Assembly (NCBI GenBank): GCA_947174915.1
Contig: CAMWKV010000007.1
Span: forward strand, 1-32,220
Source of the DNA: an uncultured Porphyromonadaceae bacterium
GTDB taxonomy: Bacteria; Bacteroidota; Bacteroidia; Bacteroidales; Muribaculaceae
Direction: 5' to 3'
DNA: 32,220 nucleotides
The notes under the pieces were generated by a model. It was not told the DNA's origin. It worked only from the letters and a program-made list of their open reading frames with translations, and searched no databases. A program made the translations under genes and the position numbers. Positions 12,619-31,400 of this stretch are shown here, piece by piece. Within the stretch, counting starts at the first letter, position 1. Each line of letters begins with the position of its first letter.

Positions 12619-12690
12619 GGCCCATTCGTCTATCGGTTAGGACGCAAGATTTTCATTCTTGAAAGAGCAGTTCGATTCTGCTATGGGCTA
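12619..12690 (+). tRNA. tRNA-Glu (anticodon TTC), copy 1
   Basis: The 72-base sequence folds as a cloverleaf: acceptor GGCCCAT/ATGGGCT (with a G-U pair at the end), anticodon stem CAAGA/TCTTG with loop TTTTCAT (anticodon TTC), and T-arm AGCAG-TTCGATT-CTGCT. CCA is not encoded. It lies 38 bases upstream of rpsT. Confidence 0.95.
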
Positions 12691-12728
12691 CAAATAATAA
12701 AATAGCGAACACAACCGCCTCAAATAAT

Positions 12729-13028: not shown

Positions 13029-13100
13029 GGCCCATTCGTCTATCGGTTAGGACGCAAGATTTTCATTCTTGAAAGAGCAGTTCGATTCTGCTATGGGCTA
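13029..13100 (+). tRNA. tRNA-Glu (anticodon TTC), copy 2
   Basis: Identical over all 72 bases to the copy at 12619. The identity runs on for five more bases (CAAAT) downstream. No separate promoter is evident; it probably shares the transcript with copy 1 and rpsT, ending at the terminator just downstream. Confidence 0.95.
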
Positions 13101-13104
13101 CAAA

Positions 13105-14688: not shown

Positions 14689-14714
14689 CTTAAAAATTAT
14701 TCGACTTTGGGAAA
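14689..14714 (+). repeat. Left border direct repeat of the accessory island
   Basis: CTTAAAAATTATTCGACTTT... matches the sequence at 22188-22213 at 24 of 26 positions in the same orientation. It lies just after ribF, and flanking TTCCCAAA / TTTGGGAA also lets this copy form a hairpin that could terminate ribF transcription. Confidence 0.6.
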
Positions 14715-14922: not shown

Positions 14923-15981
14923 TTAGACAAGTTGCAGCTGGGCCTTTACGTTATCGACAGAGGTATTCAGCAGGGCCGCCGCTTTTGAGAAAGAGATTAT
15001 CTCATCGGCAAGCGCACGATACACCATTCTTACGAATCGCCCTGAGGTCTCGGGAATCGCAAGCGAACGCTCTACCAACGAATTGAACTCAGGGAAAATC
15101 TTCTTCTTTTTAAGGTAGCCCTCATATCGCCGTCCGGTAATGACTCCGTTATGTGCCAATGATTCCATTATAGAATCGATGGAAATACCGTACTGCTTTT
15201 GAATATCGGTCAGTTCAGCCAATGATATATCATGTCTGCTTTTTCCGAGCCTTGATTTCAGAACCCCGGAAGGCAGAAGAATCTCTCTGGCGAAAGTGTT
15301 ACAGGCATCTTCCATGACTTTATTTGAAACATCTTCGCCAAACTTCATCAGCAGATGACCGAACTCGTGAAGAAGGGTGAAGCGCTTCCTCTCGGAAGTC
15401 AGATTGCAATTTATGACAATCAAAGGGATATTGTCATTCGCATATCCGCTTAATCCCTCGAATGATTCAGATTCGGACACCTCGATAATCTTAATGCCAT
15501 TGTCCTCCAAGACCTCGATAACATTGGAGATACCATTGACACCTAAGCCGAGTTTTTGCCTGACTGAATTGGCTAAAGCTATCACGTCACCACCATTGGA
15601 AATCTGTTTGTGCTGAAGACTAAAAGAAGACGCAACACCGGAGAGTTGTTCAACTTCCAGATAGCGTTCAAGTTCCTCGCGCACTTTCTCCTTGACTGCA
15701 AGCGCATCCTTTTCTGAGAATCTGCTCTTTTTGCGGAACATCACCTTGTCAACTTCCACAGTAAAAGGACGGAAGAAATAATCAGGTTTTACGCCGAGAA
15801 CCATGCCGAGAGAAATCAACATCCGGCTATCAGGCATTGACTGACCTTTTTCATATTTGTTGATAGCCTGACGTGACACACTGGGCTGAACCGACTGGCC
15901 CAGCTCTTCCATGCTTATTCCTTTAATCAGTCTCGCTTGATTGAGCCTGCGACCGAATATATTTGAAGTGTCCTTACTCAT
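14923..15981 (-). CDS. XRE regulator fused to ImmA/IrrE metallopeptidase
   Basis: A 352-residue two-domain protein. Residues about 8-70 are an XRE helix-turn-helix (RRLNQARLIKGISMEELGQ ... VSRQAINKYEKGQSMPDS). The C-terminal half is an ImmA/IrrE-type peptidase: IVINCNLTSERKRFTLLHEFGHLL with the zinc motif HEFGH at about 204-208, and EDACNTFAREILLP, which supplies the third zinc ligand. Such proteins work as antitoxin-like or phage-element repressors that can be switched by proteolysis. It is followed, three bases later, by a truncated PIN toxin gene, so the antitoxin may have outlived its toxin. An inverted repeat brackets its promoter, suggesting autoregulation. It lies inside the island but outside the inner inverted-repeat segment. 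Confidence 0.9.
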   Translation of the reverse strand: MSKDTSNIFGRRLNQARLIKGISMEELGQSVQPSVSRQAINKYEKGQSMPDSRMLISLGMVLGVKPDYFFRPFTVEVDKVMFRKKSRFSEKDALAVKEKVREELERYLEVEQLSGVASSFSLQHKQISNGGDVIALANSVRQKLGLGVNGISNVIEVLEDNGIKIIEVSESESFEGLSGYANDNIPLIVINCNLTSERKRFTLLHEFGHLLMKFGEDVSNKVMEDACNTFAREILLPSGVLKSRLGKSRHDISLAELTDIQKQYGISIDSIMESLAHNGVITGRRYEGYLKKKKIFPEFNSLVERSLAIPETSGRFVRMVYRALADEIISFSKAAALLNTSVDNVKAQLQLV

Positions 15982-16047: not shown

Positions 16048-16086
16048 AAGCGCGTCTATATACTTTCTTGCACCAACGGTTCTGTA
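16048..16086. repeat. Left inverted repeat of the inner 6.1-kb segment
   Basis: These 39 bases are the reverse complement of 22152-22190 at 36 of 39 positions. The repeat contains the last codons (EPLVQESI), the stop codon, and about nine following bases of the 50-residue family gene. Beyond it, TTTCGACTT resembles the sequence outside the right copy with a small deletion. Confidence 0.8.
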
Positions 16087-16208
16087 CCATTCTTGGTTTG
16101 CTCAGGCGCACCACTTTCTTCGGTTGGATCAAGGGATGCCTTAATTTGCATTTCTAACTTATGCTCTAAGGAATTTGCTTCGAGGGATTCTTGGAGTGTC
16201 TTAAACAT
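16056..16208 (-). CDS. 50-residue protein of an unrecognised VQESI-ending family, copy A
   Basis: The ORF track gives 74 residues from 16280, but the second in-frame Met (16208) gives a 50-residue protein that aligns without gaps over its full length with the protein at 20068-20220 (32 of 50 identical). Shared blocks are TLQE, ANSLEHK, IKA and the C-terminal VQESI. The centre is acidic, Pro/Glu/Thr-rich and variable; the rest should be helical. There is no signal peptide or membrane segment. Two independent copies with unequal bases but kept frame argue for real genes. Function is unknown. The 3' end lies within the left inverted repeat. Confidence 0.7.
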   Translation of the reverse strand: MFKTLQESLEANSLEHKLEMQIKASLDPTEESGAPEQTKNGTEPLVQESI

Positions 16209-16285
16209 ATTGTTTGAGCTTTTAGATTTGTAAATGTATTGATTAAGTAGCGGTATAATTTTATCGTAATCCAAAATCAATTCAT

Positions 16286-16510
16286 ATGTACAAACAAATT
16301 GAAACTACACCCGAAATTACGTTACCCAACGGTGCTCACAGTAAACCAGTCGCAACATTAGCAGTTGAGTATGGCGGTATATGTCAAATTGTCAGGGATG
16401 ACCATTGCTATACTATTAAGTTGAAAAATAATAATGGGCAGTATGATGATACCACCCATATTTTTCCAGAAGCATTTGAAGTTCTTAAGACTTTGCCAAA
16501 CCCGCGTTAG
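16286..16510 (+). CDS. Hypothetical 74-residue protein
   Basis: Not recognised. A 74-residue reading frame starting MYKQIETTPEITLPNG, with two beta-rich stretches (VATLAVEYGGICQIV, HCYTIKLKN) and a C-terminal helix (PEAFEVLKTL), so it looks like a small folded alpha/beta protein. It has no cysteine motif or membrane segment. It is divergent from the VQESI copy A gene and converges with the GIY-YIG gene; the last bases of the two stop codons overlap by four. A weak TAATTTTA -7-like box lies upstream. It could be an antitoxin or inhibitor of the neighbouring nuclease, but that is only a guess from position. Confidence 0.5.
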   Translation: MYKQIETTPEITLPNGAHSKPVATLAVEYGGICQIVRDDHCYTIKLKNNNGQYDDTTHIFPEAFEVLKTLPNPR

Positions 16511-16869
16511 CAGTTGTGTTGAGTATTACAGGTGAAATCGTTACCTTCCAAAATATCAGCTTCAATATTTTCACGTTCGGCATTACTAACCCCCATTACG
16601 CAAAAGCAATTGGCATTATGCACATTAATATCGTTCTCATGGTCGTGGTCATAAAAACGACGATTTAAATGCTCAGTTTCGCCACAGTAAATCAAAGTGT
16701 GTGAAAATGACCCATTTTGTTGTTTATATCTTCTGGTAAAAATATAAACAGCACTTACATCGTTAAACACACCCTTGACGTCTTCAAAACAGTCAATGGA
16801 GTACATATTGAACTTGTACTCACGACCGCTCTTCCCTTTAATTGTAAAATGGTTGTCTAATTTTTTCAT
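16507..16869 (-). CDS. Single-domain GIY-YIG-like nuclease
   Basis: A 120-residue protein with the layout of a GIY-YIG domain: AVYIFTRR (residues 40-47, VYI in the GIY place), LIYCGETEHLNRRF (59-72, YCG in the YIG place and Arg 70), ENIEADIL (metal-binding Glu about 103) and a late Asn in FTCNTQ (about 115). This set covers the usual catalytic residues. About 33 residues precede the domain. Free-standing GIY-YIG proteins are often mobile-element or defence nucleases; here it has no DNA-binding partner domain. It overlaps the stop of a convergent 74-residue gene. A bidirectional terminator 38 bases upstream separates it from the five-gene operon. Confidence 0.65.
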   Translation of the reverse strand: MKKLDNHFTIKGKSGREYKFNMYSIDCFEDVKGVFNDVSAVYIFTRRYKQQNGSFSHTLIYCGETEHLNRRFYDHDHENDINVHNANCFCVMGVSNAERENIEADILEGNDFTCNTQHNC

Positions 16870-16907
16870 ATTTTTTTTGATTTAAATGTTATATTATCTA
16901 CCAAGCA

Positions 16908-16939
16908 AAAAGCGTGCCAGAGAGATCCAGCACGCTTTT
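16908..16939 (-). terminator. Terminator of the five-gene operon
   Basis: AAAAGCGTGC and GCACGCTTTT form a ten-base-pair stem with a 12-base loop. On the minus strand it ends in a T-run (GCTTTTTG). The symmetry would let it work in both directions. Confidence 0.8.
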
Positions 16940-16975
16940 GTCGTCTTTATACTATTGTTAGAACTCTTCAATCTG

Positions 16976-17137
16976 TCATTTCTTTTTGCCAAACATAGCA
17001 CCGAGAACCATTCTGCCCACCTTTCGTTCCAAACCTTGTTTGGTCGTGGGGATGCCAGTCTTTCTGGCTATTTTCTGCTTGGCTGCGGTAATGCCGGCTG
17101 CTCTTTTGAGTGAAAAACTAAGTCCGGGGATTTTCAT
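16976..17137 (-). CDS. Hypothetical 53-residue basic protein
   Basis: Too short for the ORF track. It reads MKIPGLSFSLKRAAGITAAK, continues through RKTGIPTTKQGLERKVG and ends in FGKKK. It is strongly basic (about a quarter Lys/Arg) and amphipathic, so it could bind nucleic acid or membranes. Its ATG overlaps the stop of the 39-residue membrane peptide gene (ATGA). I have an impression of similar short proteins in other Bacteroidales, but no function is known to me. A terminator follows 36 bases downstream, making it the last gene of the operon. Confidence 0.6.
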   Translation of the reverse strand: MKIPGLSFSLKRAAGITAAKQKIARKTGIPTTKQGLERKVGRMVLGAMFGKKK

Positions 17138-17253
17138 ATGTTTCCGATTAGTTTGTTAAGCCCATAGAACATGAGGAACACAAGTCCCCAAAACAACATC
17201 TTGAAGAAGTTGCGCCACATGTAAAGCAAAATTAGCAGAAGATACTTCCACAT
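17134..17253 (-). CDS. 39-residue membrane peptide
   Basis: Too short for the ORF track. It reads MWKYLLLILLYMW, then RNFFKMLFWGLVFLMFYGLNK. It is almost wholly hydrophobic with a central RNFFK, so one long or two short membrane segments are likely. It starts seven bases after the stop of the 291-residue gene, and its own stop overlaps the next ATG by four bases. The tight packing on both sides is the main evidence that it is translated. Such peptides can act as toxins or membrane effectors, but that is only inference here. Confidence 0.55.
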   Translation of the reverse strand: MWKYLLLILLYMWRNFFKMLFWGLVFLMFYGLNKLIGNI

Positions 17254-17260
17254 TATTTCA

Positions 17261-18136
17261 TTAGAGCCCCTTGGCTTTGAATGACTTAACCATCTTCTTG
17301 ATTAAGTTGTCTATTTCGTTGGCGATACCGCCCATGAAAGCGGCTCGGGCAGTGGGATTTTTAAGTTTGCCAAATCCCTCCGATGTCATTGTTTTGAAGT
17401 TGAGTTCGTTGCGAGGTGAGGCAGTGGCACACGCAGCCCATGCGGAATGGTCAACGTCAACATCTATTAACGGGTCAACGCCGGTTAAAGCTGCGACTAA
17501 TGCAGGACCGGTTGCGACCTCTCCTTTGTAGCGCACTCCAAAGAAATATCTCTCTTTCATGATGATAGAGAATGTCACAGCCTTGTTTTTACGGTCTTTT
17601 GTTTTATAGATGTCAAAAGTAACACCGTAGCGTTTGTAACGGGGATTTTTGACGTAGTCTGCCACATCGGCTGTGAAGTCTTTCTTCTCGATGTCGTACC
17701 CTTTGGCGATGAGTTGGTCTTGCAACGCGTTCCAGAAGTAGAGCTGCAACTGCTCGTCGCTCATATTGTCGGTTTCCACCGCCTCACGCCCAGCGGCGGC
17801 AATCGTCATGTTGCCTGGCATCAACTTTGTGTTATCAGAGTTAGCCACTTTTACTGTGATGCCAAAGATGTCCTTCATCTTTGCTTCAAAGTTGCCGACC
17901 TGCAGGTTTCCCTTGCAGGTAAGTTCGCCTCCCTTTACATTCTCACCGCTACGGATGGATGCGAGGGTGGCATTTTCGGGTGCGAACTTCGCGCCTTTGT
18001 ACACGCGCAGGGTCGCTCCGAATGCGTCCTTGAATTGTTTTCTCAGACTGCTGACCGTCATACGGCCATTGATGTTGAATTCTGCCATAGTAAAATTGTC
18101 TTTTATGGAGTTGATAAGATTGTTTAGTACACCCAT
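17261..18136 (-). CDS. Uncharacterised protein with two N-terminal internal repeats
   Basis: A 291-residue protein (or 275 if it starts at the internal MAEFNINGRMTV, base 18088). Residues about 19-65 (INGRMTVSSLRKQFKDAFG, TLRVYKG, ATLASIR) and about 75-115 (CKGNLQVGNFEAKMKDIFG, VKVANSD, MTIAAAG) are two copies of one unit: G-x-hydrophobic-V, a helix ending FG, then a strand and an Asn/Thr-rich turn. The C-terminal half (YFWNALQDQLIAKGYD ... RYFFGVRYKGEV) is separate and unrecognised. No signal peptide or membrane helix. I believe similar proteins occur in other Bacteroidales, but I know of no function. It is the third gene of a tightly packed operon with a nuclease-like protein. Confidence 0.75.
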   Translation of the reverse strand: MGVLNNLINSIKDNFTMAEFNINGRMTVSSLRKQFKDAFGATLRVYKGAKFAPENATLASIRSGENVKGGELTCKGNLQVGNFEAKMKDIFGITVKVANSDNTKLMPGNMTIAAAGREAVETDNMSDEQLQLYFWNALQDQLIAKGYDIEKKDFTADVADYVKNPRYKRYGVTFDIYKTKDRKNKAVTFSIIMKERYFFGVRYKGEVATGPALVAALTGVDPLIDVDVDHSAWAACATASPRNELNFKTMTSEGFGKLKNPTARAAFMGGIANEIDNLIKKMVKSFKAKGL

Positions 18137-18157
18137 AATTTTCTATGTTTTCGTGGT

Positions 18158-18400
18158 TTATTTTATTCTTTTCAAAGATGCTTTCGCGTTCTCAATATCC
18201 CGCTTGAGACTTTCTATTCTCCTATCATGAGCAGCTGCCCTGTCTATCTTTGATTTACGATAGCTGGCTTTGCCTGATGGAGTGGAAGTTTTCTTTATTA
18301 AGTTCGCATAATAGGCATTATCTTTCTTCTTGGCTTCCCGTTCTTTGGCGATAGAAGCTCTAAGGTCGATAATGCGTTTTTTATAATATTCTTTGCTCAT
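18158..18400 (-). CDS. Small lysine-rich coiled-coil protein
   Basis: An 80-residue, highly charged protein (MSKEYYKKRIIDLRASIAKE ... ESLKRDIENAKASLKRIK) with heptad-like hydrophobic spacing at both ends and a Ser/Lys-rich middle, so it probably forms a helical hairpin or coiled coil. Function is not recognised. Its ATG overlaps the stop of the upstream nuclease-like gene (ATGA), and the 291-residue gene begins 21 bases after its stop, which supports cotranscription. A nuclease-binding or scaffold role is possible but unproven. Confidence 0.65.
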   Translation of the reverse strand: MSKEYYKKRIIDLRASIAKEREAKKKDNAYYANLIKKTSTPSGKASYRKSKIDRAAAHDRRIESLKRDIENAKASLKRIK

Positions 18401-19269
18401 TGTTCGGTATCAAGTTTATATGTGTCCGAGATACGTTCCCAAACACACATGTTTTCTTTGATTGATTTTTCTTTGTTCAGCCGGAACACGCCGACAAAGC
18501 GGTAGGTATTCATACCAAGCCAATCGGCATATTTCAAGAAGGTTATTCGCTTAACACCTTTGTCAATATGCGACATCATGTGTCCGCGACGCTCCGACTC
18601 CTCCTTTGGATATTCAGTAATTGTCAGTTTGTCGTCAGATAACTTATTGTACCATTTAGAGTGATTTTCGTTAGGCCACCAAACGAGGTCTTTATTTTCC
18701 TTATTTGGTACCCAGACTGCCGATACTCTCAAAAATCCTTTATGCTTTGGTTTTGTGCCAAATATAGCAGCTATATCATCTATGGTATTGAGCGAAACAT
18801 TATCATCTACGCTTATTACACCTCTTTGTCGCACTTCTTCGGGAGTGTCAGTGCCTTTCCATGGAATAAGAGGTTTTTCGTTTATCTTCTTTCTTATGAA
18901 ATCGATAACCTTATCTGTACGCTGATTAAGTTCATCAAGAGAGCAAGCGACAGCGTTGCCGTTTACTACATTGTAGCAATCAATAACCTTGACATCTGCA
19001 TATTGCGATATTTCAGTATTGCGGATTCTGTCGGCTTCTTGATTTTTGTAGTGGGCAGGCTCGTTTATTTCAACAACGAGATTAATTTGAGGAAGATATA
19101 AATCTGCAAGAGCATACTTTCCCTCTTTTCTCACAACATACTGCTGGAAAATGAAATGGATGTCTGTGTTATCAAGGGCATTCCAAATGCGGTGTATTAC
19201 ATAGCTTTCCAATCTCTTGTGGGAGATTTTGGTTAGCATTCGGGTAATGTAATCTAATTTGTAGTCCAT
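18397..19269 (-). CDS. DUF559/PD-(D/E)xK-like nuclease protein
   Basis: A 290-residue protein from MDYKLDYITRM (ATG 19269); the ORF track begins 15 codons earlier at 19314. Residues 50-90 read ALADLYLPQINLVVEINEPAHY, then a run with D, R and N, a pattern like DUF559/Vsr-type PD-(D/E)xK nucleases: Asp 56, Glu 67 and a nearby His, with Asn where Lys is usual. Glu 21 in an N-terminal helix also fits. The C-terminal half (about 180-290) ends in TYRFVGVFRLNKEKS ... VWERISDTYKL, resembling the C-terminal segment of some restriction enzymes; it may recognise DNA. It is the first gene of a five-gene operon in the island. A defence nuclease is the leading idea, not demonstrated. Confidence 0.65.
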   Translation of the reverse strand: MDYKLDYITRMLTKISHKRLESYVIHRIWNALDNTDIHFIFQQYVVRKEGKYALADLYLPQINLVVEINEPAHYKNQEADRIRNTEISQYADVKVIDCYNVVNGNAVACSLDELNQRTDKVIDFIRKKINEKPLIPWKGTDTPEEVRQRGVISVDDNVSLNTIDDIAAIFGTKPKHKGFLRVSAVWVPNKENKDLVWWPNENHSKWYNKLSDDKLTITEYPKEESERRGHMMSHIDKGVKRITFLKYADWLGMNTYRFVGVFRLNKEKSIKENMCVWERISDTYKLDTEQ

Positions 19270-19314
19270 ATCTCGTTGGTTTGTATCTATACACGAAAAA
19301 AGAGCGACAGCCAA

Positions 19315-19710
19315 AACTTTCTCCTATTTGGTTAATTAGGCTCTGGAATGCCTTGACGCTCAAATAAGTAAAAAGCAGTCTGCGCCCTTGTCGGGTACAA
19401 ACCAACATTTCGACTTATTATTTGTGGGCGTCAATGTAAATTTTCCAGATTTAATTAACCCAAATAACTTGTCTAAAAAGTCATGTTTGAAATATGTCTT
19501 GCTTTAGTCTTTCTGTTTCTTGCTTCGGCGGATTTTTAGTTTTACCATCCGCAAATTAAGCAAAAATTTCTGACATACACAAATCCATATCGCAGAACTG
19601 CCTAAAAATTTGGTGGTTGTCTCATCATAAAAATACCCACCCGTATTGTTCCGAGTGGGTATTTGGCATTATACTTATCAAATTATGTTTTGTTGCAAAC
19701 CAAAGATATT
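19315..19710. other. Gene-poor stretch upstream of the five-gene operon
   Basis: About 400 bases with no convincing gene. It holds a GCGGAT/ATCCGC inverted repeat near 19530-19555 without a T-run, and the hairpin listed at 19631-19664. The operon promoter should be here, but I cannot place a clear TAnnTTTG box. ORF-track entries here (19172-19408, 19617-19808) have no protein-like features. Confidence 0.5.
19631..19664 (-). terminator. Hairpin terminator after the transposase remnant
   Basis: AAATACCCAC and GTGGGTATTT form a ten-base-pair stem with a 14-base loop; on the minus strand it is followed by T-rich sequence (TATTTTTATG). It lies about 50 bases downstream of the remnant's stop codon. 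Confidence 0.7.
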
Positions 19711-20061
19711 TTAACATTTACCTCCTACATAAGTTTCGTCTACTTGCGTATCATTATCAAATTCTGCGTCATCATCACGTAGATTTTCGCGAATACGACC
19801 GAGCATAAACCATGCAGTCTTTTGGGTAACATTTATGTCGCGGGCAAGTTGAGCCGAACTTATACCTTTCTGGTGGGATATAAAGAGGTATATAGCATAG
19901 AACCACTTTTTGAGCGGAATGGAGTCATTTACTTTGTTCTTAAATTTTATTACAGAGTAATTGTACCGTCCAAACACGCGTTTGTTAAATTTTGAGGAAA
20001 GAAAATTATGCTTCGATGAAATTTTTCTTTCTTTTCTTTGGAATAAATATATTAACCCCAA
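19711..20061 (-). pseudogene. IS1595-family transposase remnant
   Basis: The frame contains IPLKKWFYAIYLFI, SSAQLARDINVTQKTAWFML and QVDETYVGG, the helix-turn-helix and first catalytic Asp region of IS1595/ISXO2-type DDE transposases. The N-terminal zinc ribbon is unrecognisable, and the frame stops two residues after VDETYVGG, so the remaining catalytic residues are missing. Full transposases are about 300 residues. The first 40 residues of the ORF may not be original coding sequence. It is inactive and points to past transposition in the island. Confidence 0.8.
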
Positions 20062-20067
20062 AAAAAG

Positions 20068-20220
20068 ATGATGCAGACACTACAAGAAGCACTATACGCA
20101 AACTCCTTAGAACACAAGTCAGAAATGCCGATTAAGGCTGCTTTGGAACCGGAAGAAGAGGAGGAAAAACAAGCGCAAACCGAGAATGATACAGAATTAT
20201 ATGTGCAAGAGAGTATTTAG
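20068..20220 (+). CDS. 50-residue protein of the VQESI-ending family, copy B
   Basis: Not in the ORF track. It reads MMQTLQEALYANSLEHKSEM, a Glu-rich middle, and ends YVQESI. It matches copy A (16056-16208) at 32 of 50 positions without a gap and has the same length. Conserved ends with a variable acidic centre are visible. It starts six bases beyond the start of the divergent transposase remnant and stops 114 bases before the 191-residue gene. No function is known; conservation of length and termini is the support for translation. Confidence 0.65.
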   Translation: MMQTLQEALYANSLEHKSEMPIKAALEPEEEEEKQAQTENDTELYVQESI

Positions 20221-20222
20221 GC

Positions 20223-20288
20223 ATTACAAACAATGTAATAACAAAATATTTTTGTACCTTTGTGCGTTATTAGTCACAGATTTTGTGA
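20223..20288 (+). promoter_or_regulatory. Promoter region of the soluble/membrane gene pair with two palindromes
   Basis: TACCTTTG (20255-20262) is a good -7 box; no TTG is present at the -33 position. It is flanked by ATTACA/TGTAAT (20223-20239) and TCACA/TGTGA (20274-20288), possible regulator sites or small hairpins. Confidence 0.4.
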
Positions 20289-20334
20289 TAAACTTGACAA
20301 CCCATTATGTTACAAATGAGGCCATAGATACAGC

Positions 20335-20910
20335 ATGAATACTGAATTTAATAATTACTACACAAGTCTTGCCGAGGCTTTCGCTAGCGGAGAATTGTTC
20401 TTTACCCGTAACACCGACTGTCTCCACAATGCAGCCATTATGAAGCTGATGTTGGAGAAGGGAACTCGCATATCAATGTACTGTGGCTCAATGTCGATAT
20501 TCAAAAATAAATTTTATTCGAATATACTTGATGACAACGGTAAGCCGGATATAGATATAAAGCGACAGGTATGTGAAGCCTTCGTTGACTTTATAAATCG
20601 TCCCGGTACTCATATTGACATAATATTAGAGAAGGAACCGAATAATCTAATCGATGATCTCATCTTTGATGTGTCATATCTTAATAATGACTCTGTCAAT
20701 ATATTCCAAATCCCTAATATCATCAGAGAAAAATCTAATTTAAATCATTTCTCATTCATTGATAATTCTGAGATTACACGTTTGGAAACCGATCCAGTAC
20801 AGCATACTGCTCTATGTAAGATAGGTTTGTCTGACAAAATTAACTCTCCCGTAGAGTCTTTTAATACACTTCTTGAAGCCTCAAGCCGTGTTAACATTGC
20901 AAACTGCTAA
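20335..20910 (+). CDS. Unrecognised 191-residue soluble protein paired with a membrane protein
   Basis: Starts at ATG 20335 (MNTEFNNYYTSLAEAF). The most conserved-looking segment is LHNAAIMKLMLEKG ... ISMYCGSMSIFKNKFY, then a second alpha/beta stretch (THIDIILEKEP). It has no membrane segment or signal peptide and looks like a compact alpha/beta domain. I do not recognise the family. Its end overlaps the membrane protein frame by up to 38 bases, depending on the start used there, so the two are translationally coupled. It is AT-rich and lies at the right end of the inner segment. Soluble-sensor plus membrane-effector pairs are common in defence, but that is inference. Confidence 0.65.
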   Translation: MNTEFNNYYTSLAEAFASGELFFTRNTDCLHNAAIMKLMLEKGTRISMYCGSMSIFKNKFYSNILDDNGKPDIDIKRQVCEAFVDFINRPGTHIDIILEKEPNNLIDDLIFDVSYLNNDSVNIFQIPNIIREKSNLNHFSFIDNSEITRLETDPVQHTALCKIGLSDKINSPVESFNTLLEASSRVNIANC

Positions 20911-22078
20911 TAACGGATTTCTCAGTGAAGATACTTTTTTGGGGGTTATACTAACTCTCAATGTCCTTTGTATGTTCTTCAGTAAGCAGAACAATTTTAT
21001 TTTTGGCTTGCTTTCGGAGTTATGGCAACAACTCAAAGTTTCAATAAAAAGTTTACAAAAGTCCATTACAGAAGATGCTGATCGTTATAAAACCGATGAA
21101 CGCCTAAAAGCTTTACATGATATAACCGAGGGAAGTGTCTCATGTCAAGATGACACTATTACCCAACTTGCACTTCAAATACAGTATACTTTTGAAAATA
21201 CCATTCAGCAATTAAAGACCGATTTAACGCCATGCCTTTTGAGAATGGATCGTATAGAGAACTCTAACGAACAAATCCGTGCCCCGTTTTTTACCTTATT
21301 GTTTGGTCTTGCAATCTTTTCCATCAATATGATTTGTAAATGGTGTTCTAATGAGAATATAGAGTTAGTATTACCATCAGTGTGGATTTTTACACTTTTA
21401 TCTATTATATATTGGAGTTCCATTTGGATTGCATTCTGTTTTAGAAGCATGAAAGAACAGAGAGAGGAGAAAACTAAAAGACCCAGCAGTTTTTGGTCAA
21501 AAATTGACGAAAGGTGTAATTGGCTGTTGGGTAGTACAATTAAAATCATTTTATGTGGTGGAGTTGCACTCATAATCCTGCGAGCAAGTAATAATTATAT
21601 AGTAAATATTCCTGTATTGTGGCAGTTTACATTAGTAGTATGCGTATTACTGCTATCTATTTGTATAATTGGTATTTGTCGTTTGATTTGGTGTAGTGTA
21701 AAAGGGAAATATTCGCCTATGCACGTTTTGGGTCATATTGCAGCATTCATCGTTTATTCTACAATATTAGGATTTATATACAATGATTGTGGCTACAATG
21801 CATGTGATATTTTATTTTTCAATTATAATGCACTGAATGGTTGCGTAATATTTTTTGCTCTTGTTAACAGTATAATTTTCCCATTTATTCTGCCACATTT
21901 TAAATACCGCAAGCCATATAATGAAACGATGTCGGAATTGCGTAATAACAGAGAGAAGCTGAATAATGCTATAAATTTGTTTAACGATGATTTCAATATG
22001 TGGTCGCGAAGGAAAGTTATTAGTGACCTAGAAAAAGAAAAGGCCCAAAAGCAGAAAGAAAAGGCTTCAAAAGATTAG
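20873..22078 (+). CDS. Multi-pass membrane protein with C-terminal coiled coil
   Basis: Up to 401 residues; the ORF-track start is a TTG inside the previous gene, so the true start is uncertain. Hydrophobic segments lie at about 22-38 (FLGVILTLNVLCMFF), 142-160, 167-190 (IFTLLSIIYWSSIWIAF), 222-240, 248-270 (FTLVVCVLLLSICIIGI), 284-303 and 322-342, giving about seven passes. Residues 50-130 form a long charged helical region, and the tail (residues 350-401, KVISDLEKEKAQKQKEKA) is a charged coiled coil. No transporter or enzyme motif is recognised. It forms a pair with the soluble 191-residue protein. The right inverted repeat begins 74 bases after its stop. Confidence 0.7.
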   Translation: MKPQAVLTLQTANNGFLSEDTFLGVILTLNVLCMFFSKQNNFIFGLLSELWQQLKVSIKSLQKSITEDADRYKTDERLKALHDITEGSVSCQDDTITQLALQIQYTFENTIQQLKTDLTPCLLRMDRIENSNEQIRAPFFTLLFGLAIFSINMICKWCSNENIELVLPSVWIFTLLSIIYWSSIWIAFCFRSMKEQREEKTKRPSSFWSKIDERCNWLLGSTIKIILCGGVALIILRASNNYIVNIPVLWQFTLVVCVLLLSICIIGICRLIWCSVKGKYSPMHVLGHIAAFIVYSTILGFIYNDCGYNACDILFFNYNALNGCVIFFALVNSIIFPFILPHFKYRKPYNETMSELRNNREKLNNAINLFNDDFNMWSRRKVISDLEKEKAQKQKEKASKD

Positions 22079-22151
22079 ATATTCTAATTATTGATGTTAT
22101 TCTTGCCCAAATTATGGCGATATTCATTTGTTAATGTTAAACTATACATTA

Positions 22152-22190
22152 TATAGAACCTTTGGTACAAGAAAGTATATAGACGCGCTT
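22152..22190. repeat. Right inverted repeat of the inner segment with a VQESI gene remnant (copy C)
   Basis: It matches the reverse complement of 16048-16086 at 36 of 39 positions. On the plus strand it encodes EPLVQESI and a TAG stop, the 3' end of a third family member whose upstream part is gone (an in-frame stop lies a few codons before). The repeats therefore point outward with the gene 3' ends at the segment edges. Confidence 0.8.
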
Positions 22191-22213
22191 AAAAATTTTT
22201 CGGCTTTGGGAAA
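22188..22213 (+). repeat. Right border direct repeat of the accessory island
   Basis: CTTAAAAATTTTTCGGCTTT..., matching 14689-14714 at 24 of 26 positions in direct orientation. It lies 19 bases before the stop of the first core gene on the right side and overlaps the inverted repeat by three bases. Confidence 0.6.
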
Positions 22214-29178: not shown

Positions 29179-29467
29179 CTTTTTCTTTTCGGGATTTGCT
29201 TTTTCACTTTTCGACAATTATCAACAGCTCTTTTTTATTATTTCGTTTTTAGTTTAAAAAAATCATTTTTTCAATGAAATCTCATCAAGAATAATAAAGG
29301 CTGTTGAAACCTTCGATAAGTTTAGAGGCTAATATTTGCTTTTTGTACTTATTGATTATCCGACGAGGGTTACTTACAACTTATCTACAGTTATCAACAG
29401 TCTGTGTGTTGAAATTAATAAATTGTTTTATAGACGATTAGACGATATTCAATGGCCGTTGAGATAT

Positions 29468-29495
29468 AGTTATCAACAGTATGTAGATAAGTGTT
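29468..29495 (+). repeat. 28-base oriC direct repeat, copy 1 (paired DnaA boxes)
   Basis: A DnaA box TTATCAACA, three bases, and an inverted box TGTAGATAA within a 28-base unit repeated exactly at 29999-30026. Confidence 0.85.
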
Positions 29496-29742
29496 GATGT
29501 TGATATTTTGATAAGTGAAAAATGGTAGAAAAACGTTCATAACCGTCCTTTTTCCTGTTGAAAAGGCCATGATAAGTAGTGAGAAAAAAGTGCCGTAAAA
29601 ATTTGGAAATCGCCGACCATTAGTGGCTTATAACATTTAGGGTCTCAATCCAAATAAAGTTGTTGGTAACTTATCATCGCTTATCAACAGACTTATCAAC
29701 AGACATTGTCAACAAGTATGGAGCGACTGCTTCCGGGAGATG

Positions 29743-29857
29743 TTCTCTGCGTGTCTCTGCTCCTCTGCTGGCCTCTGCGTGAGACAAATTTTTCGGGCGT
29801 CATTCGGGAGCGCTACATGGAATTGGCTCACGCAGAGGAGCAGAGACATGCGGAGAA
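29743..29857. repeat. Long inverted repeat inside the origin region
   Basis: Arms 29743-29768 and 29832-29857 match in inverted orientation at 24 of 26 positions. A 12-base inner pair (29772-29783, 29827-29838) offers an alternative fold. It interrupts two DnaA-box clusters and resembles a mobile palindromic repeat unit, not a gene; the ORF at 29706-29984 runs through it. Confidence 0.65.
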
Positions 29858-29998
29858 TTATGAAACAGTATCGTGGCCGGAGGAAGCTCTTGACGGGTAT
29901 CGGGCTACGGTGTTATCTACAGCTTTATCTACAAGTTATCAACAATACCTTCCGATAATAAATAGCTATTATTCAAACGAATAATAAAATACAAGTGA

Positions 29999-30026
29999 AG
30001 TTATCAACAGTATGTAGATAAGTGTT
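29999..30026 (+). repeat. 28-base oriC direct repeat, copy 2 (paired DnaA boxes)
   Basis: Exact copy of 29468-29495, at the right edge of the origin. Confidence 0.85.
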
Positions 30027-30143
30027 TGTCGACAAGTGTTGACAGTTGTAGACAGTAGATGTAGGAGGCTAATGTGACAAAATTGATCCATGGAGTAAAA
30101 GATATTTAACGCGCTTGAAATGGATAGTTTAATGATTATTCAT

Positions 30144-30151
30144 TATTTTTG
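30144..30151 (+). promoter_or_regulatory. -7 box upstream of proA
   Basis: TATTTTTG matches TAnnTTTG, 19 bases before the proA ATG. A TTG at 30115 is 26 bases away, longer than usual. Confidence 0.5.
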
Positions 30152-30170
30152 CGTGCTAATAATAAATCTT

Positions 30171-31400
30171 ATGGATTTTTCCACATCCCGCCGGGCAGCG
30201 AGCGCCCTGGCTACATATAAGAAAGAAGATATCGACAGACTGTTGATAACTCTTGCGGATGCTATCGAATCGCGCCGCGCCGCTATCCTCGCCGCCAATG
30301 CAGAGGACTGCGCCGCTATGCGCAGCGATGACAGTCGCTACGACCGTCTGCTCCTCACCCCCGAAAGAATATCCGACATCGCCGACGGTATCCGCACCGT
30401 AGCCGCTCTGCCGTCGCCCCTCGACATAATCCTCGACAGTTCCACCCGTCCCAACGGCATGACGATACGTCGGGTCACCGTACCCTTCGGCGTGATAGGC
30501 GTCATCTTCGAAGCACGTCCCAATGTGGTGTTCGACGTCTTCGCCCTCACCTTCAAGGCCGGTAGCGCCTGTGTGCTCAAGGCCGGCCACGAAGCTGCCG
30601 CTACAGCAGCAGCCGAGGTAGCTGTTATTCGCGAAGTACTCCGTGACGCCGGTCTGCCGGCCGACTGTGTCGTCCTCCTCCCCGACGGCCACGAAACCGC
30701 CGACGAGATGATGCACGCCCGCGGTGACATAGACCTCCTGATACCGCGTGGCAGCCGACGACTCATCGACTACGTACGCGAACATGCCACAGTACCCGTC
30801 ATAGAGACCGGCGCCGGTGTGTGCCACACTTACTTCCACGCCTCCGGCGACATCGCCACCGGCCGCGACGTCATCTTCAACGCCAAAACGCGCCGCGTGG
30901 GTGTATGCAATGCCATGGACTGTCTGCTCATAGACCGCTCCCGGCTAACTGAGCTGCCCGCTATCTGCTACCGGCTCGCCGACCGTCACGTCGAACTCTA
31001 TGCCGACGAAGCCGCGTATGATGCCCTCGACGGTGCCTACCCCTACCTCCGACATGCTACCGAGGCAGATAATGGCCGCGAATGGCTCGACTACAAGATG
31101 ACCGTCATCACAGTCGATGATATTGATGCCGCCATAGCCTACATCGACCGTTACGGTTCGCGCCACAGCGAGTGTATCATCGCCGAGACAGCCGATGCCG
31201 TGGAGCGTTTCATGCGTCTGGTGGATGCCGCCTGCGTATACGCCAATGTCAGCACCGCCTTCACCGACGGCGGACAGTTCGGCTTCGGCGCCGAGATAGG
31301 CATATCCACACAGAAACTACACGCCCGAGGCCCCATGGCTCTCCGCGAATTATGTACATATAAGTACCTCATCAGCGGCGCAGGACAGACGCGCCCCTGA
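30171..31400 (+). CDS. proA: Gamma-glutamyl phosphate reductase
   Basis: ProA reduces gamma-glutamyl phosphate to glutamate-5-semialdehyde with NADPH, the second step of proline synthesis. The start MDFSTSRRAASALATYKK (30171) is used; the ORF track begins 17 codons earlier, before the -7 box. Motifs are VPFGVIGVIFEARPNVVFDV, CVLKAGHEA, LLIPRGSRRLIDYV, ETGAGVCHTY and RVGVCNAMDCLLI with the catalytic Cys (about 244), then HARGPMALRELCTYKY. The 409-residue length is normal. Its kinase partner proB is about 18.5 kb upstream. The endonuclease I gene follows after 35 bases. Confidence 0.95.
   Translation: MDFSTSRRAASALATYKKEDIDRLLITLADAIESRRAAILAANAEDCAAMRSDDSRYDRLLLTPERISDIADGIRTVAALPSPLDIILDSSTRPNGMTIRRVTVPFGVIGVIFEARPNVVFDVFALTFKAGSACVLKAGHEAAATAAAEVAVIREVLRDAGLPADCVVLLPDGHETADEMMHARGDIDLLIPRGSRRLIDYVREHATVPVIETGAGVCHTYFHASGDIATGRDVIFNAKTRRVGVCNAMDCLLIDRSRLTELPAICYRLADRHVELYADEAAYDALDGAYPYLRHATEADNGREWLDYKMTVITVDDIDAAIAYIDRYGSRHSECIIAETADAVERFMRLVDAACVYANVSTAFTDGGQFGFGAEIGISTQKLHARGPMALRELCTYKYLISGAGQTRP

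What the first reader, a model, noticed from the sequence alone, without database searches (positions are those of the whole stretch)
16048..22190. 6.1-kb inner segment bracketed by 39-bp inverted repeats built from a gene 3' end
Arms 16048-16086 and 22152-22190 match at 36 of 39 positions in inverted orientation. Each contains the end of the same 50-residue gene family plus its stop codon. They could be transposon-like ends or sites for inversion of the segment.
Basis: seen in the sequence. Interest (0 to 1): 0.8.

Follow-up and report, generated by a model that had tools for sequence, protein, structure and literature searches.

The report
Transposon ends around a restriction-nuclease cargo
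The two matching inverted repeats are the ends of a worn-out jumping gene (IS1595 type) that carries a nuclease likely to protect against viruses with modified DNA, and the nuclease gene is preceded by an undescribed structured RNA switch-like leader that occurs widely in gut Bacteroidales.

Summary
In detail: arms 16048-16086 and 22152-22190 match at 36/39 positions. They are terminal inverted repeats (TIRs, about 45-50 bp, outermost CGCGTCTATATAC) of an IS1595-family transposon with passenger genes. The same TIR was found in 10 of 397 same-family genomes. In 7 of these it forms an inverted pair 2.3-6.4 kb apart; relaxed scanning pairs an eighth, and one more has its two ends on separate contigs. 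Five relatives have exact 8-bp target duplications. Relatives encode an intact 331-aa DDE_Tnp_IS1595 transposase. The window keeps only residues 77-151, the only remnant in its genome, so this copy is non-autonomous. It lacks a clear target duplication. The backbone is a PvuRts1I-like modification-dependent nuclease with 80-aa and 291-aa genes; cargo next to the TIRs varies. Inversion is unsupported: no recombinase and no inverted relative.
Unexpectedly, the nuclease leader (19296-19474, minus) is a structured RNA absent from Rfam 15, with strong covariation. It occurs in 52/324 Bacteroidales genomes, with a same-strand gene downstream in 47/48 cases. A terminator competing with its P3 stem suggests transcription attenuation; the signal is unknown.

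The parts
16051..16099 (-). Left TIR of the element (outermost base 16051). The strand given is that of the ORF that ends in it.
   Evidence: 36/39 match to the right arm; the same core recurs at element ends in other genomes
16059..16208 (-). 50-codon small ORF ('...TEPLVQESI*'), last codons and stop inside the left TIR
   Evidence: relatives in G023 and L031/L032, there at the other end of the element
16286..16510 (+). 74-aa passenger ORF, no family
   Evidence: not shared with the other elements
16507..16869 (-). 120-aa GIY-YIG-like passenger ORF (weak, below Pfam cut-off)
   Evidence: PF01541, E 7e-4; unique to this element
16903..16950 (.). Terminator-like segment ending the backbone operon, conserved even where the operon genes differ (L055, L057)
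16976..17137 (-). 53-aa backbone ORF
   Evidence: DNA conserved in relatives
17261..18136 (-). 291-aa backbone protein; C-terminal part matches the PADLOC candidate PDC-S26
   Evidence: E 3e-13; cluster of 7 across elements
18158..18400 (-). 80-aa backbone ORF
   Evidence: cluster of 7 across elements
18397..19269 (-). PvuRts1I-like modification-dependent nuclease (N-terminal nuclease domain + SRA), about 290 aa starting at ATG 19269
   Evidence: Pfam PF21598 E 2e-31 and PF18491 E 2e-35; PADLOC mREase_II E 1e-77; start at 19269
19324..19474 (-). Structured RNA leader, 3' domain: P1 19459-19452/19338-19331, P1b 19449-19443/19348-19342, P2 19434-19428/19359-19353, P2b 19419-19413/19369-19363, P3 19402-19393/19387-19378
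19296..19310 (-). Terminator 3' strand CTGTCGCTC plus T6, complementary to the P3 3' strand
19475..19620 (-). 5' part of the conserved leader (about 78-93% identical in related transposons)
19705..19929 (-). Transposase remnant (residues 77-151 of 331); zinc ribbon and most of the DDE domain deleted
20068..20220 (+). Second 50-codon small ORF, divergent from the transposase; its 3' end (20175-20223) is a degenerate relic of a TIR
20335..20910 (+). 191-aa passenger ORF, no family
20873..22078 (+). 401-aa passenger ORF, hydrophobic stretches, no family above cut-off
22139..22187 (+). Right TIR of the element (outermost base 22187)

Best explanation
The segment 16051-22187 is a decayed, non-autonomous copy of an IS1595-family transposon with passenger genes. 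The 39-bp arms are part of its ~45-50 bp TIRs. When intact, a Zn-ribbon/DDE transposase of this family would bind and cut the TIRs and join the element to A/T-rich DNA, duplicating 8 bp (the duplications are seen in relatives; the reaction is inferred). The constant backbone is a PvuRts1I-like modification-dependent nuclease operon; variable genes are added between the backbone and the TIRs. The 50-aa ORF is a gene whose last codons lie inside a TIR. The nuclease is preceded by a structured RNA whose P3 stem competes with an intrinsic terminator, so the nuclease is probably controlled by transcription attenuation. The RNA structure (by covariation) and the complementarity are shown; regulation and the signal are inferred.
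For: TIR pattern: 10 of 397 family genomes hit, 18 matches, none for the reversed control pattern; seven genomes hold inverted pairs 2.3-6.4 kb apart, and the relaxed scan pairs an eighth, G318. Exact 8-bp duplications at L035 AATTAAAG, L057 TCCTTATA, L060 TAAATGAA, L061 TAATTTGA, and TTCACAAA on the two contigs of L063/L064. Intact 331-aa transposases with DDE_Tnp_IS1595 (E 1e-35) and Zn_ribbon_IS1595 (E 2e-13) in L032 and L035. Shared nuclease, 80-aa and 291-aa genes with variable end cargo. IS1595 hallmarks from papers: usually 8-bp duplications and a zinc finger domain (PMC8101967); A/T-rich 8-bp repeats (PMC12561309). RNA: A3 covariation 43 double-changed cells against 4-14 in slid controls; A4 518 against 70-98; terminator complementarity 0/2000 permutations; same-strand gene in 47/48.
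Against: No matching 8-bp duplication at the window's own ends (CGAAAAAG / CTTAAAAA), nor at L055, L056, L058 or L062. The transposase here is a fragment, and no intact copy is held in the genome. No empty site could be read: ribF and the 155-aa gene are not neighbours in relatives, which are too diverged. A 26-bp direct repeat (14689-14714 / 22188-22213) takes in the neighbouring HTH-peptidase gene and is not explained by a simple insertion. Alignment A4 was fitted to the RNA model, so its counts lean towards the structure.
Confidence: 0.9

Rival explanations
1. The arms are recombination sites and the segment between them inverts to switch gene expression.
For: Long inverted arms flank genes; invertible DNA is common in Bacteroidales (general knowledge).
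Against: No tyrosine or serine recombinase among the ORFs examined in or next to the segment. The arms recur as ends of differently located elements with 8-bp target duplications, which inversion sites do not make.
Confidence: 0.03
2. A refinement of the best explanation: the segment is a composite of two or more nested copies. The left TIR with its small ORF is the right end of another copy in reverse, and the relic TIR at 20175-20223 is an older right end, so cargo was captured by using outer TIRs.
For: In L055, L056 and L058 the small ORF sits at the end of the element beyond the nuclease leader; here an intact copy sits at the other end. 20175-20223 matches the L055 TIR end at 82%. The window has no clean duplication.
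Against: No intermediate form was found; other routes (deletion, homologous recombination between copies) give the same picture.
Confidence: 0.5
3. The arms are merely the conserved 3' ends of a gene family that happen to lie in inverted orientation.
For: The left arm is the end of an intact ORF and both arms share coding capacity.
Against: The TIR occurs without the ORF at most element ends, and the duplications abut the CGCG end of the TIR, not the stop codon.
Confidence: 0.02
4. The conserved leader before the nuclease is not a regulatory RNA but a coding N-terminal extension or a DNA hairpin used in recombination.
For: An open frame runs through it into the nuclease in L057 and L060. A long stem can also form in single-stranded DNA.
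Against: Indels that are not multiples of three and helix-wise compensatory changes. 47/48 copies precede a same-strand gene. A U-run with a matched terminator strand is expected of RNA. Many pairs are G-U.
Confidence: 0.1

Closest known systems
IS1595 insertion-sequence family with passenger genes (Siguier et al. 2009, known here through papers that cite it)
   Same: DDE_Tnp_IS1595 and Zn_ribbon_IS1595 domains, TIRs, 8-bp A/T-rich target duplications, passenger genes
   Different: Long (~45-50 bp) TIRs with their own sequence, a conserved restriction operon as backbone, cargo at both ends, and an ORF that ends in the TIR
PvuRts1I family of modification-dependent restriction endonucleases
   Same: PvuRts1I-like N-terminal nuclease domain plus SRA domain
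   Different: Carried on a transposon with 80-aa and 291-aa partner genes; substrate untested
Transcription attenuators and riboswitches with a terminator expression platform
   Same: Conserved 5' structured RNA and a terminator that competes with one of its stems, upstream of the gene
   Different: Not in Rfam 15; found before unrelated genes (nucleases, dynamin GTPases, BspA-type LRR proteins); no ligand or trans factor known
DUF805 RNA (RF03081)
   Same: A cis-regulatory RNA family of Rfam, found by gathering score next to one member of the new family (L147)
   Different: Separate stretch in L147 (1695-1760, RNA model match 1501-1633); the new family itself matches no Rfam model

Membership tests
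IS1595 family | Transposase with DDE_Tnp_IS1595 domain and (most groups) an N-terminal zinc ribbon | tested here: inconclusive
   Met in relatives with the same TIRs (L032, L035); in the window only residues 77-151 remain
IS1595 family | Terminal inverted repeats | tested here: met
   16051-16099 / 22139-22187
IS1595 family | 8-bp target duplication | tested here: not met
   Not met in the window copy; met exactly in 5 relatives with the same ends. The window copy is therefore filed as a decayed derivative, not as an intact member
IS1595 family | TIRs recognised by the transposase | not testable with these tools
   Needs a binding or transposition assay
Invertible DNA segment | Site-specific recombinase nearby | tested here: not met
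   None among the segment's ORFs or the adjacent HTH-peptidase gene
Invertible DNA segment | Both orientations seen | not testable with these tools
   No reads are held; related loci have different flanks
PvuRts1I-like nucleases | PvuRts1I-like N-terminal domain plus SRA domain | tested here: met
   PF21598 E 2e-31, PF18491 E 2e-35
PvuRts1I-like nucleases | Cleavage of hydroxymethylated or glucosylated cytosine DNA | not testable with these tools
   Needs biochemistry
Transcription attenuator / riboswitch | Covarying conserved structure | tested here: met
Transcription attenuator / riboswitch | Mutually exclusive terminator | tested here: met
   By sequence complementarity only, 0/2000 permutations; not shown in vivo
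Transcription attenuator / riboswitch | Responds to a ligand or trans factor | not testable with these tools
   No data

The most novel reading that the evidence does not exclude
The leader is a new, widespread Bacteroidales attenuator or riboswitch class that senses a stress or infection signal and is re-used to switch on unrelated accessory and defence genes, including genes carried by transposons.
Probability: 0.4. Interest if true: 0.85.

Novelty: new variant of a known kind. Interest (0 to 1): 0.62.

Why it matters
It suggests how a modification-dependent restriction nuclease moves between gut Bacteroidales chromosomes; no phage, plasmid or viral-contig record searched here carries the element. 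It also uncovers a structured RNA family, missing from Rfam 15, in front of defence-type and surface-protein genes in many Bacteroidales families. If the attenuation model holds, it gives a directly testable answer to how such genes are kept silent until needed.

Tried and rejected
Empty-site reconstruction: ribF and the 155-aa gene are not adjacent in relatives, which are mostly 30-60% identical in these proteins. Phage, plasmid and viral-contig searches for the small ORF, the TIR or the leader found nothing. Rfam search of the segment gave only one sub-threshold match elsewhere. The first RNAalifold consensus gave little covariation because MAFFT misaligned the variable helices; single-sequence folds and a trimmed alignment resolved this. 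A loop-loop pseudoknot reading of the leader was considered and dropped: the nested P1-P3 stem is the minimum-energy fold of all 13 sequences and covaries. My ad hoc cross-pairing test of P2 was uninformative because the strands are low in complexity. An integron attC reading was dropped: conserved blocks sit mid-stem and no integrase is present.

Full report
Observation. In simple base shuffles of the window, nine of ten gave no inverted 16-mer match and one gave 4 hits, against 24 in the real sequence; this counts every inverted match of the window, not only these arms. The left arm is the end of an intact 50-codon ORF; the right arm has the same coding capacity but no gene.

What the arms are. 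A protein search with the 50-aa ORF found few relatives: one in 60 related genomes and five loci in the genome collection, all Bacteroidales or 'Bacteroides sp.' metagenome-assembled genomes. In L031, L032 and L035 the arm occurs twice, in inverted orientation, 2.5-5.2 kb apart, between unrelated host genes. A pattern search for GTACANGAAAGTATATAGACGCG in 397 genomes of the family gave 18 matches in 10 genomes and none for the reversed control; in an order-wide sample only the window's genome and one other matched. After fetching these loci, five elements showed exact 8-bp target duplications: AATTAAAG, TCCTTATA, TAAATGAA, TAATTTGA and TTCACAAA (the last with its ends on two contigs). Eight bases agreeing by chance has a probability near 1 in 65,000 per element, somewhat more in A/T-rich DNA.

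The transposase. L032 and L035 encode intact 331-aa proteins with DDE_Tnp_IS1595 (E 1e-35) and the IS1595 zinc ribbon (E 2e-13). Published features of the IS1595 family are the DDE_Tnp_IS1595 domain, a zinc finger domain in most groups, usually 8-bp duplications (PMC8101967) and A/T-rich duplications in one member (PMC12561309). That IS1595 members may carry passenger genes is from Siguier et al. 2009, which I know from memory and through citing papers; I did not read it. In the window only residues 77-151 of the transposase remain, with a clean deletion of the first part and loss of the rest; the genome holds no other copy. The window element is thus non-autonomous.

Anatomy. Across elements the order is: left TIR, optional cargo, 53-aa ORF, 291-aa protein, 80-aa protein, PvuRts1I-like nuclease, conserved leader, transposase, then on the other strand the small ORF or a cargo gene sharing its first 27 codons (L033, L035), then the right TIR. 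In L055 and L057 the nuclease is a different version followed by a 62-aa gene, yet the leader and the terminal hairpin of the operon are conserved. L035 carries the transposase but no nuclease. Cargo next to the TIRs is different in nearly every element. The window has cargo on both sides: a 74-aa ORF and a GIY-YIG-like ORF on the left, 191-aa and 401-aa ORFs on the right.

The small ORF. Its final codons are TIR sequence. It is intact at the left TIR here and at the opposite end in L056 and L058 (in L055 with an altered N-terminus). The second window copy (20068-20220) ends in a degenerate TIR-like stretch (20175-20223), which looks like a former right end now buried by new cargo. Capture of cargo by use of an outer TIR is my inference. 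The elements with this small ORF at one end lack matching duplications, which would fit rearranged or composite copies.

The unexplained direct repeat. 14689-14714 and 22188-22213 are 92% identical. The first lies in the ribF terminator; the second begins at the base after the right TIR. Between them lie the HTH/ImmA-IrrE-type protein (14923-15981; PADLOC RmrA-like, E 5e-39) and the whole element. I could not decide whether this marks an earlier insertion of that gene or a rearrangement, since no empty site could be read.

The leader RNA. The minus strand of 19270-19660 folds far better than shuffles (z = -5.6) and is conserved in all ten related loci where it could be read. A DNA search found it in 36 of 397 family genomes, many without the transposon ends and some before other genes: operons with uracil-glycosylase-like, PD-(D/E)XK and WYL proteins. 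Thirteen sequences fold separately into the same nested stem P1-P1b-P2-P2b-P3. On alignment A3, 43 cells show changes on both sides against 4-14 when partners are slid. Model R1 found it in 52 of 324 genomes sampled from the order but in only 6 of 297 in a phylum-wide sample, one of them the window's own genome. On 50 members, 48 of 53 pairs carry compensatory changes, 518 cells against 70-98 slid (this alignment is fitted to the model). Rfam 15 does not contain it. The model's E-values are rough and the large-sample filters lose weak matches, so the counts are approximate.

How the leader may work. In 47 of 48 members the next gene is on the same strand, mostly 50-150 nt downstream. In most members the 3' strand of P3 is complementary to the segment just before a U-run: mean duplex energy -14.9 kcal/mol against -9.8 for mismatched partners and -7.3 for shuffled ones, 0 of 2000 permutations. 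In five members the automatic choice of U-run or strand failed. In the window these are 19387-19378, 19310-19302 and T6 at 19301-19296, about 26 nt before the nuclease start codon. This is the layout of a transcription attenuator: the long stem holds P3 and allows read-through; when it does not form, the terminator does. Direction of control and signal are unknown.

Verdict. The inverted repeats are ordinary in kind (transposon ends) but bound a new variant: an IS1595-type carrier of a modification-dependent nuclease. The RNA leader inside is the more surprising part.

Noticed in passing
14689-14714 and 22188-22213: 26-bp direct repeat (92%) of the ribF terminator region flanks the HTH-peptidase gene plus the whole transposon.
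   Followed up: partly
14923-15981: HTH plus ImmA/IrrE-type peptidase protein, PADLOC RmrA-like (E 5e-39), directly beside the element.
   Followed up: partly
12619-12691 and 13029-13101: Two tRNA-Glu(ttc) genes about 98% identical over 84 bp, 410 nt apart.
   Followed up: no
29205-30254: Cluster of repeats like TTATCAACAG/TTATCTACAG, resembling DnaA boxes; a possible replication origin region.
   Followed up: no
L033 1461-1931, L035 9995-10471, L060 3334-3885: Unrelated cargo proteins share the first ~27 residues (TLQEALEANSLEHKLEMQIKASL); an N-terminal module joined to different C-termini.
   Followed up: partly
L147 1695-1760 and 2659-2727: DUF805 RNA (RF03081) between the new leader RNA and its gene, and again before the next gene.
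   Followed up: no
L153 1260-1395 and 2385-2520: Two near-identical copies of the new leader RNA 1.1 kb apart, each before a gene; L143 has two unlike copies in tandem before a dynamin-like GTPase.
   Followed up: no
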